In this document: in pieces, positions 16,535 to 19,500 of the stretch
Position numbering within the stretch: the first letter of the stretch is position 1
Layout of the letters: every line of letters starts with the position of its first letter
Origin: a bacterium
Lineage (GTDB): Bacteria; Armatimonadota; Abditibacteriia; Abditibacteriales; Abditibacteriaceae
Direction: 5' to 3'
DNA: 64,000 bases
NCBI GenBank assembly: GCA_004172935.1
Contig: SDZD01000009.1
Location: 1-64,000 of the forward strand
Program-made: the position numbers and the translations under genes
Notes under the pieces: model-generated
The model's database searches: none
What the model was told of the DNA's origin: nothing
The model's input: the letters and a program-made list of their open reading frames with translations, nothing else

Positions 16535-19500
16535 CTAATGCGCAAAACTCGAAACGAAACTTTGGACTGACAAGTCCTCGCGCCACCCACGTTTTAGCTC
16601 TTGAACTGCTATCTGACGCACCCTCGCCTCACTATCGTTTTGAACACGATCTCGGATAAGAGCTAGAGTTTGCGGGTCTTCAGGCCATCCTTGCGCCAAG
16701 GCTTGAACTGCTGTCCAACGCATCCTTGCGTCAGTATCGTTTTGAACACGGTCTCGGATAAGAGCTAGAGTTTGCGGGTCTTCAGACCACCCACGTCTTA
16801 AGGCTTGAACTGCTACTTGGCGAACATCTGCGTCACTATCGTTTTGAATACGATCTTGAATAAGAGCTAGAGTTTGCGGGTCTTCAGCCCTTACCTCAGC
16901 CAAGGATTGAACTGCTATCTGACGAACAATTTCATCACTATCGTTTTGAACACGGTCTCGGATAAGAGCTAGAATTTGCGGGTCTTCAGCCCCTACTTCA
17001 ACCAAGGATTGAACTGCGGCCCAACGCACCCTTGCCTCGCTATCGTTTTGAACACGATCTCGGATAAGAGCTAGAGTTTGCGGGTCTTCAGCCCCTACCT
17101 CAACCAAGGATTGAACTGCTATCTGACGCACCCTCGCCTCACTATCGTTTTGAACACGATCTCGGATAAGAGCTAGAGTTTGCGGGTCTTCAGGCCATCC
17201 TTGCGCTAATTCCTCAACTGCAGCTTCACGCACATCTGAGTCAGTATCGTTTTGAACACGGTCTCGGATAAGAGCTAGGGTTTGCGGGTCTTCAGACCAC
17301 CCACGTCTTAAAGCTTGAACTGCTATCCGACGCACACCTGCTTCACTATCGTTTTGAATACGATCTTGAATAAGAGCTAGAGTTTGCGGGTCTTCAGGCC
17401 ATCCCTGCGCCAAGGCTTGAACTGCAGCCTCACGCACATCTGCCTCACTATCGTTTCGGAGATTACCCTTTAGCCACACTAGAGTTTGCGGGTCTTCAGA
17501 CCACCCACGTTTTAGCTCTTGAACTGCTATCCGACGCACACCTGCTTCACTATCGTTTTGAATACGATCTCGGATAAGAGCTAGAGTTTGTGGGTCTTCA
17601 GGCCATCCCTGCGCCAAGGCTTGAACTGCTATTTGACGCACCCTCGCCTCACTATCGTTTTGAACACGATCTCGGATAAGAGCTAGAATTTGCGGGTCTT
17701 CAGCCCCTACCTTAACCAAGGATTGAACTGCGGCCCGGCGCACGCTTGCTTCACTATCGTTTTGAACACGATCTCGGATAAGAGCTAGAGTTTGCGGGTC
17801 TTCAGCCCCTACCTCAACCAAGGATTGAACTGCGGCCCGGCGCACGCTTGCTTCACTATCGTTTTGAACACGATCTCGGATAAGAGCTAGAGTTTGCGGG
17901 TCTTCAGGCCATCCTTGCGCTAATTCCTCAACTGCAGCTTCACGCACATCTGAGTCAGTATCGTTTTGAATACGATCTTGAATAAGAGTTAGAGTTTGTG
18001 GGTCTTCAGGCCATCCTTGCGCTAATTCCTCAACTGCTGTCCAACGCACTGTTGGCGAACTATCTCTTTGTGCCATCTCTCGGAGCCATAGCAATGTTTG
18101 TGGATCATCACGCCAATTACGAGCAAGTACCTCTACAGCCAACCAGTTTGACTTACTAATTTGTTGTTGAAGCCAAGAACGTGTTCTAATATCTGGCCAG
18201 ACTACAACAAGGGTCGCAAGGGCGTGTCTTCTAACTTCGAACCCTCTTACATCACTATATTGTGCGAGGGACTGAATTGCAGTGCGGAGCCGATCACTTA
18301 AAACGTCAAAACCGTTTCGGTTTCGTAGATCAGAAAAACATTGTGCAGCTAGAAACAAGTGGGAAGATGCCTTCCTGTCCTGCTTGGTTAGTAATCCTTC
18401 GATAAATTGAGCAGCCAGTTGCGAGTTTAGGCGGCCAATAACCAGGCGCAATACCTCATGCCACGTCTCATCTTTCCAGTGTGCCTCAAATGTTGCAAGT
18501 TCTAGGTCTTCTTGAGTTATCTCGTGTTTCTCAAATTTCCATACAAAATCGGATGCACAGAAAAACTCTAAAAAGGTCCGATGCACAAAAGCGAAAAGTT
18601 CATCTCCTAAAAAGCAAAGGATGAAGTTGCGAGTCCGTAGTTGCTCGATGAGTCGTCTCGCGATGGGTGCTGGCGCCGAATAACCATGTGTACGAATGTA
18701 CACTTCCAATGTTGTTTCTAACTCATCACGTGTAATAACATTACCTGCCAAGCCTTTAGGACCGGTTTGCATCTGGCTGGCAACTGCTCGCAACATAGCC
18801 TGTTTGTCGCGATAGTCGAAACTCTTGTCAATCTGTGCAAGGTCTTCACCTAAGGCGCGTGAGGCGTCCCACTGTTGCAACAATAAGCGTGACGCCTGCT
18901 CATACAATTCAGTTCGGTCACGTGGTAACTCTTGGTGGCGATTGAGTAACGCCATTAAAGTAAGCAAGAGTGGATTTTGAGCTAATTCGCGTATTGCCTT
19001 CGAATCATTAATGGCCTTTCTCAAACGGTCACGCTTGATTTGCAACTCACGAACGTCAGAGTAAGCTAAGTGATGCCAGTTCTGGATGAAGCTTTCGATT
19101 TGTTCATGTTCCAAATCTTGAAGCATGAAATGCTGAAATCCTGCATCACGCAGTTTTTGGTATTGATAACCAATGACACGAGATGTAACAATAAAGCGAG
19201 TTAGTGAATAAAATCCTGTTAATCGTTCAATCTCTTGTACTACGCGTTGGCGTGTGGATAAATCGAAAATTTCGTCTAGCCCATCAAAAAGGAAATATGC
19301 ACTACCATTTTGTAGCGCCGCATGCAGTTCATGCTGCTCCAAACGTCCGCACACACCAATACCATGATCCAAATAACCCAAAAAATCTAGGGGTTGCCCA
19401 TCAGATATATTTTCAACATATGTTTTTAACTCAATAAGCAAAGGAATTGGTTGTGTCGCTAGTTGGGAAGGTTCAAGATTAGCCCATTGTAGGGCAAGGT

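What the first reader, a model, noticed from the sequence alone, without database searches (positions are those of the whole stretch)
16580..18109. Near-identical 34-aa HEAT-like repeat array on a NACHT protein, with variation confined to discrete positions and swappable tail modules
Seen in sequence: 14 consecutive repeats of exactly 34 aa (102 bp), consensus EDPQTLALIRDRVQNDSEAxVRxxAVQ, plus one degenerate repeat. The first ~17 residues are almost invariant. Differences fall mainly at position 20 (S,R,G,D,I...), positions 23-24 (RA,QI,RI,EA,WA,QV,WT) and the last 8 residues. The tails come from a small set: xxLAQGWP, QSLVEVGA-type and QELKRGWS/QALRRGWS-type. Tail order from repeat 1 to 14 is AQGWP, VEVGA, VKVGA, AQGWP, KRGWS, AQGWP, RRGWS, AQGWP, VEVGA, VEVGA, AEVRA, RRGWS, AQGWP, KRGWR. 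A conserved scaffold with a few variable surface positions and shuffled tails resembles natural modular recognition arrays. In STAND/NLR proteins the C-terminal repeat superhelix is usually the sensor. Inference: this may be a rapidly diversifying ligand- or phage-sensing surface.
Basis: partly seen in the sequence, partly recalled or inferred. Interest (0 to 1): 0.82.

Follow-up and report, generated by a model that had tools for sequence, protein, structure and literature searches.

The report
Bacterial immune receptor with modular array
A bacterium of the phylum Abditibacteriota carries a relative of our own NOD-like immune receptors whose tail is a row of 15 near-copies of one 34-residue module; the module's changeable spots sit where engineered binding proteins of this shape hold their targets, so it is probably an evolvable sensor of viruses, of a kind shared by thousands of bacterial proteins.

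Summary
In detail: 15 consecutive 34-aa HEAT repeats (16580-18109, minus strand) end a 1293-aa NNH2-NACHT protein. It is not a singleton: 3083 homologues were scored, best 46% identical overall, and 162 of the arrays examined (this one included) share the 34-aa period. The window's array is average in internal identity. Its "shuffled" tail order is mostly a duplicated 7-repeat block plus mini-cassette exchange, and simple dN/dS between its repeats is below 1.

The recognition idea gains support from the family. Positions 19, 20 and 23 are the most variable and have pN/pS intervals above 1 across 21 independent clusters. The only Protein Data Bank sequence match is alphaRep, engineered HEAT binders randomised at the equivalents of positions 19, 20, 23, 24, 27 and 31. 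Near-identical receptors split into clusters with rewritten arrays (11 of 18) and frozen arrays (6 of 18). The same chassis carries TIR, SIR2 or DUF4062 domains instead of NNH2.

Best reading: a horizontally acquired NLR-related (bNACHT-type) immune receptor, a new member of a known kind. Its concave HEAT face is the sensor; it probably acts by abortive infection. Ligand and NNH2 activity are unknown. Fungal NACHT-WD40 receptors show the same evolutionary mode; I found no published bacterial description.

The parts
16535..20416 (-). Whole ORF, 1293 aa from TTG; probable real start is the ATG at 20389 (residue 10)
   Evidence: GC3 0.39/0.33 against 0.59-0.69 in four neighbouring genes
19793..20329 (-). 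NNH2, NACHT N-terminal helical domain 2 (residues 30-208), in the effector position
   Evidence: PF22734, E 1.2e-47
19070..19555 (-). NACHT NTPase (residues 288-449); Walker A GDPGSGKS and Walker B FDGLDE intact
   Evidence: PF05729, E 1.9e-9; conserved columns; folds like NLRC4/NOD2/NLRP3
18110..19069 (-). Helical/winged-helix arm (NPLLL and FVHRTFLEFF motifs) and degenerate HEAT-like helices (residues 450-769)
   Evidence: conserved columns in A1/A2; AF2 model pLDDT 84
18008..18109 (-). Repeat 0, the degenerate first 34-aa HEAT repeat
17294..18007 (-). Block A: repeats 1-7
   Evidence: lag-7 duplication
16580..17293 (-). Block B: repeats 8-14, 87% identical in DNA to block A
   Evidence: lag-7 duplication
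16538..16579 (-). Short C-terminal tail EDLSVQSFVSSFAH

Best explanation
It is a horizontally acquired, single-gene, NLR-related (bNACHT-type STAND) immune receptor. The 15-repeat HEAT solenoid is the sensor. Residues at positions 19/20, 23/24, 27 and 31 of each repeat form a continuous concave ligand surface, while the rest of the repeat is scaffold. Ligand binding, most likely of a phage protein or of a host protein altered by infection, would release the NACHT module to exchange nucleotide and oligomerise. That would bring the NNH2 domains together and trigger cell death or dormancy. Near-identity of the repeats lets unequal crossing-over and gene conversion duplicate blocks, swap mini-cassettes and change repeat number, so the surface can be rewritten without breaking the fold. 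Shown: domain layout, predicted fold, intact NTPase motifs, block duplication, foreign base composition, the match to alphaRep binding positions and the family-level excess of amino-acid change at them; mosaic exchange is likely. Inferred: ligand binding, phage sensing, oligomerisation and the NNH2 effector role.
For: Domains. The NNH2-NACHT model matches NLRC4, NOD2 and NLRP3. The array folds as a HEAT solenoid, pLDDT 85.7. The only PDB sequence match is an alphaRep binder, 6gwc, whose design randomises 18, 19, 22, 23, 26 and 30 (PMC3754942) = 19, 20, 23, 24, 27 and 31 here. Entropy at this set chosen in advance: 1.50 against 0.53 bits in the window (p = 0.0016) and 1.29 against 0.62 in 161 other arrays (p = 0.0024). 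pN/pS against array-wide pS: position 19 1.72 [1.41-2.16], 23 1.68 [1.29-2.27], 20 1.57 [1.18-2.12], 18 1.34 [1.08-1.74]. 141 near-orthologue pairs: 11 of 18 clusters differ by 46-65% at the variable positions with 4-11% N-terminal difference. One pair with a fully alignable 4 kb upstream flank has a 96% identical N-terminus, 5 against at least 9 units, 46% against 6% differences. Block duplication and exchange. Effector swap: the nearest NACHT relative P0011 (67%) carries TIR_2; others carry SIR2_2 or DUF4062. DUF4062 is an antiphage NADase (PMC13174449) and bNACHT proteins defend against phage (PMC12169576).
Against: No experiment exists on an NNH2 or 34-aa-array protein in what I could read. 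The gene stands alone among housekeeping genes, not in a defence island. Simple dN/dS inside this array is 0.50-0.64. Six of 18 clusters have frozen arrays. The TIR evidence in the window's own clade rests on one protein. The mosaic test weakens when whole codons are permuted (10 of 400 and 4 of 400).
Confidence: 0.62

Rival explanations
1. Recombination-driven drift on a permissive scaffold: repeats duplicate and convert as slippery DNA, buried positions are held by purifying selection, and exposed positions drift neutrally without any moving target.
For: In this array synonymous differences concentrate in the same half (pS 0.44 against 0.17) and dN/dS is below 1; block duplication.
Against: Family-wide pN/pS intervals lie above 1 at positions 18, 19, 20 and 23 but not at exposed helix-A positions 7, 8 and 12, whose intervals include 1. 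In frozen clusters the same positions tend to be more conserved than the rest (for example 3.9% against 12.5%), which neutral drift does not predict.
Confidence: 0.2
2. A fixed-partner receptor or regulator: the array binds one conserved host partner, as in the frozen Nostoc clusters, and the repeat variation adjusts shape or affinity rather than tracking pathogens.
For: Six of 18 clusters keep order and concave residues; syntenic L051/L061 differ by 1% at the variable positions. bNACHT25 senses phage through the host protein DnaJ (PMC12169576).
Against: Eleven of 18 clusters are rewritten. TIR, SIR2 and DUF4062 effectors on the same chassis point to conflict.
Confidence: 0.15
3. Diversity-generating retroelement (DGR) target: variable codons written by mutagenic retrohoming, as proposed for NACHT-C-type-lectin proteins (PMC10907252).
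For: DGRs target STAND/NACHT genes in multicellular bacteria; two reverse transcriptases occur elsewhere in this genome.
Against: No second copy of the array DNA (no template repeat) anywhere in the genome. No reverse transcriptase nearby. Changes are not confined to one template base in the recent arrays I read by eye. The repeat is HEAT, not C-type lectin.
Confidence: 0.02
4. Assembly artefact: short-read collapse or expansion of the array.
For: Draft genome of 216 contigs; repeats 2 and 3 differ by 1 nt.
Against: The array is one open frame of 15 units with distinguishable repeats, and relatives in many independent assemblies have 6-28 consecutive units.
Confidence: 0.05

Closest known systems
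NNH2-NACHT-HEAT proteins of cyanobacteria and others (PF22734-PF05729-PF13646; PADLOC HEAT-ARM_XIII)
   Same: Same domain order, same 34-aa period, variation at the same helix-B positions
   Different: 46% identical at best; the tails (28, 30, 33, 34) vary here but not in relatives; clear 7-repeat superperiod; found in Abditibacteriota, not in the other genus or family genomes held
bNACHT antiphage proteins (bNACHT02, 12, 25, 32; NCBIfam EruA)
   Same: Tripartite STAND plan with a central NACHT; partial match to the EruA model (E 8e-8)
   Different: Those described in PMC12169576 have SNaCT or NCH1 C-termini, not 34-aa arrays; EruA score 31 against a cut-off of 1000
Fungal HNWD receptors (HET-E, HET-D, HET-R; NACHT-WD40)
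   Same: Near-identical repeats on a NACHT protein, repeat-number change, repeat exchange, excess change at a few interface residues (PMC1805685, PMC4986451)
   Different: WD40 beta-propeller, allorecognition, exchange between several paralogous loci; here an open HEAT solenoid and one copy in the genome
alphaRep artificial HEAT-like binders
   Same: Same repeat fold and same set of variable positions; the only PDB sequence hit (6gwc)
   Different: Engineered 31-aa repeats without a signalling domain
DGR-diversified NACHT antigen sensors (Thiohalocapsa)
   Same: NACHT receptors with a diversified sensor
   Different: C-type lectin sensor, mutagenic retrohoming; neither is present here

Membership tests
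STAND / NACHT (NLR-related) receptor | NACHT with Walker A and B, arm/winged-helix motifs, C-terminal superstructure repeats | tested here: met
STAND / NACHT (NLR-related) receptor | ligand-induced NTP-dependent oligomerisation | not testable with these tools
   needs biochemistry
NNH2-NACHT-HEAT family | PF22734 above gathering score, NACHT and 34-aa HEAT array in that order | tested here: met
   162.3 bits against 27; 34-aa lag dominant in nearly all of the 120 best homologues
bNACHT antiphage system | demonstrated protection against phage | not testable with these tools
   no experiment; inference from architecture
bNACHT antiphage system | close match to a curated antiphage NACHT model | tested here: not met
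   EruA 30.9 bits against cut-off 1000
HNWD-like concerted-evolution receptor | high internal repeat identity with repeat exchange | tested here: met
   70% aa identity; 125 of 276 site pairs incompatible; mosaic test 0/400, codon-block version 10/400 and 4/400
HNWD-like concerted-evolution receptor | repeat-number variation between orthologues | tested here: inconclusive
   seen in relatives; no orthologue of the window's own gene was found
HNWD-like concerted-evolution receptor | positive selection at interface codons | tested here: inconclusive
   met across the family; inside this array dN/dS is below 1 by the direct measure
HNWD-like concerted-evolution receptor | WD40 beta-propeller sensor | tested here: not met
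   HEAT solenoid
DGR target | template repeat and adjacent reverse transcriptase | tested here: not met
   no second array copy in the genome; reverse transcriptases only on other contigs

The most novel reading that the evidence does not exclude
Bacteria have a large, natural, alphaRep-like repertoire of immune sensors: NACHT receptors whose HEAT arrays are rewritten by repeat duplication and conversion and selected at the concave binding positions, independently parallel to fungal HNWD receptors, with both fast-evolving and frozen lineages. The window's protein is one horizontally moved member.
Probability: 0.5. Interest if true: 0.75.

Novelty: new member of a known kind. Interest (0 to 1): 0.52.

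Why it matters
If the reading holds, these genes are a bacterial source of evolvable protein recognition without antibodies, retroelements or CRISPR: a stable repeat whose five or six concave residues and copy number are the variable part. Because the same residues are the ones engineers randomise in alphaRep binders, natural arrays could be read as binding specificities and tested by repeat swaps. It would also show convergent evolution of NLR-type receptors in fungi and bacteria through near-identical repeats. The window's gene alone is an ordinary member of that family; its value is as an example outside cyanobacteria, with a clear record of a 7-repeat duplication.

Tried and rejected
DGR diversification: no template copy, no nearby reverse transcriptase. 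Defence island: neighbours are pyruvate carboxylase, malate:quinone oxidoreductase, PhyH, PHP, ClpX-like and DAHP synthase, with no PADLOC match in the nine tested. Phage origin or cargo: no match in 50,697 phage records and only three 23-29% NACHT matches in viral contigs. Paralogues in the genome: none. RNA families: none. Empty-site comparison: the same-genus genome is too diverged (PhyH 56%) and the fetched locus was too short to show gene order. Phycobilisome-degradation NblB (NCBIfam): 124 bits against a cut-off of 300, only a shared HEAT repeat. NNH2 function in the literature: none of the papers listed mentions it. In my notes I first counted 12 rewritten clusters; the table gives 11 rewritten, 1 intermediate, 6 frozen.

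Full report
WHAT IS THERE. ORF 16535-20416 on the minus strand encodes 1293 aa; the ATG at 20389 is a more likely start than the TTG at 20416. Pfam places NNH2 at residues 30-208, NACHT at 288-449 and HEAT_2 repeats at the C-terminus. The Walker A (GDPGSGKS), Walker B (FDGLDE) and arm motifs (NPLLL, FVHRTFLEFF) are intact and are among the most conserved columns. A model of residues 1-780 (pLDDT 84) matches NLRC4, NOD2 and NLRP3 in the PDB. A model of the array (pLDDT 85.7) matches HEAT solenoids such as karyopherins and CAND1. Helix A spans positions 3-15 and helix B positions 19-32 of each repeat.

HOST AND ORIGIN. The neighbouring pyruvate carboxylase is 96% identical to that of an Abditibacteriota genome, so the host is of that phylum. 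The NACHT gene is AT-rich at third positions (0.39 and 0.33 against 0.59-0.69 in four neighbouring genes) and has no counterpart in the same-genus or same-family genomes held. Its nearest relatives are a Planctomycetota MAG (46% overall) and unnamed environmental proteins, with cyanobacteria beyond. It was therefore probably acquired horizontally. It is single-copy and surrounded by housekeeping genes.

THE ARRAY ITSELF. Repeats 1-14 are 70% identical in protein and 79% in DNA. Seven of the first 17 residues never vary; positions 20, 23, 24, 28, 30, 31 and 34 vary most. The order of tails is explained mainly by duplication of a 7-repeat block: repeats 1-7 match 8-14 at 87% DNA identity (permutation p = 0.001; 0.005 after correcting over lags), a signal carried by the second half of the repeat. 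On top of that, mini-cassettes have moved: the codon 18-24 cassette GAGGCGAGGGTGCGTCARATA occurs with three different tails, in repeats 4, 9 and 14. A Sawyer-type test rejects no exchange (0 of 400 site permutations). In the more conservative codon-block version on the second half the counts are 10 of 400 and 4 of 400, so I regard exchange as likely rather than proven.

THE FAMILY. 3083 homologues scored at E <= 0.001 and the 34-aa period dominates nearly all of the 120 best. In 162 arrays with at least six consecutive units, internal identity has median 0.675; the window (0.67) is ordinary. Within arrays the most variable positions are 20, 19, 23, 18 and 17; V21, R22, A25, L29 and W33 are nearly fixed. 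Positions 28, 30, 33 and 34, variable in the window, are conserved in relatives. In 21 independent clusters of loci with DNA, almost all cyanobacterial, pN at a position divided by array-wide pS is 1.72 [1.41-2.16] at 19, 1.68 [1.29-2.27] at 23, 1.57 [1.18-2.12] at 20 and 1.34 [1.08-1.74] at 18; the next positions in rank have intervals that include or lie below 1. The same measure in the window exceeds 1 at 20, 30, 28, 24, 31, 23 and 34, without an interval. Caveat: the 'hot' set used was chosen from overlapping data; the alphaRep set below was not, and searches do not depend on that choice.

WHY THESE POSITIONS. The only PDB sequence match of the array is an alphaRep protein (6gwc, E 1.4e-7). 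AlphaRep libraries randomise positions 18, 19, 22, 23, 26 and 30, and complexes show binding through that face, described as concave in one of them (PMC3754942). Aligned on the shared VR motif these are positions 19, 20, 23, 24, 27 and 31 here. This set, fixed by others in advance, has mean entropy 1.50 bits against 0.53 elsewhere in the window (p = 0.0016) and 1.29 against 0.62 in 161 other arrays (p = 0.0024). I could not read coordinates of the models, so the concave placement rests on helix boundaries and this homology.

ORTHOLOGUES. None of the window's own gene was found; the search also failed to return the window's own protein, so absence is not proof. Among 141 pairs of relatives with at least 88% identical N-terminal parts, forming 18 clusters, 11 clusters differ by 46-65% at the variable positions (12-34% elsewhere in the array, 4-11% in the N-terminus) and most change repeat number; 6 clusters differ by under 11% and there the variable positions are the more conserved; one is intermediate. 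Pairs with alignable flanks show both modes: L066/L087 (96% N-terminus, whole 4 kb upstream flank aligned, 5 against at least 9 units, the L087 gene running into its contig end; 46% against 6% differences), L076/L084 (49% against 22%), and frozen L051/L061 (1% against 2%). So the receptor family contains rewritten and fixed sensors, and I cannot say which the window's is.

EFFECTOR SLOT. In a tree of 81 NACHT domains the window falls in a fully supported set of 12, of which 11 carry NNH2 and one, its nearest relative P0011 (67% identical over NACHT), carries TIR_2. SIR2_2 and DUF4062 versions with the same array type form other groups of the tree. DUF4062 has been reported as an antiphage NADase (PMC13174449), and bNACHT proteins defend against DNA and RNA phages (PMC12169576). 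That TIR and SIR2 domains deplete NAD+ in phage defence is established knowledge, not tested here. NNH2 therefore sits where killing domains sit, but nothing here shows what it does.

COMPARISON AND NOVELTY. In fungi, NACHT-WD40 receptors have near-identical repeats, concerted evolution, repeat-number polymorphism and positive selection at four interface residues (PMC1805685; PMC4986451). The bacterial family works in the same way as far as sequence can show, with a different repeat fold. Diversified NACHT sensors are known in bacteria through DGRs with C-type lectins (PMC10907252), a mechanism disfavoured here. I found no paper in the held library describing hypervariable HEAT arrays on bacterial NACHT proteins, but the library lacks subscription journals and most preprints. 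The gene is a new member of a known kind; the family-wide pattern is the more interesting result.

Noticed in passing
P0009, P0100, P0011, P0126 and relatives: The same NACHT plus 34-aa HEAT chassis occurs with SIR2_2, TIR_2 and DUF4062 N-termini, the named DUF4062 versions mostly in actinobacteria: an effector-swapping series.
   Followed up: partly
L051, L061, L042, L063 and the P0082-P0088 group: Nostoc-type receptors whose arrays are frozen, with the concave residues more conserved than the scaffold: possible fixed-ligand receptors.
   Followed up: partly
The protein search returned the window's own pyruvate carboxylase (P0199) but not its own NACHT protein, so its absence in two 96%-similar relatives cannot be concluded from that search.
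   Followed up: no
G000:C112:74767-75384 and G000:C197:1050-1517: Two reverse-transcriptase genes elsewhere in the genome; type not determined, no link to the array seen.
   Followed up: no
window 52887-52993: A 33-bp tandem repeat (3.2 copies) of unknown role.
   Followed up: no
window 28945-30567 (-): 540-aa ORF with no Pfam match, between a ClpX-like and a DAHP synthase gene.
   Followed up: no
window 16400-16540: Hairpin followed by T-run (GGACGCGCTGGGCGCGTCCTTTTT), terminator-like, between the NACHT gene and the convergent BsuPI-domain gene.
   Followed up: no
window 26239-27369 (-): 376-aa protein with weak WD40 beta-propeller matches near the locus; no link to the receptor shown.
   Followed up: no
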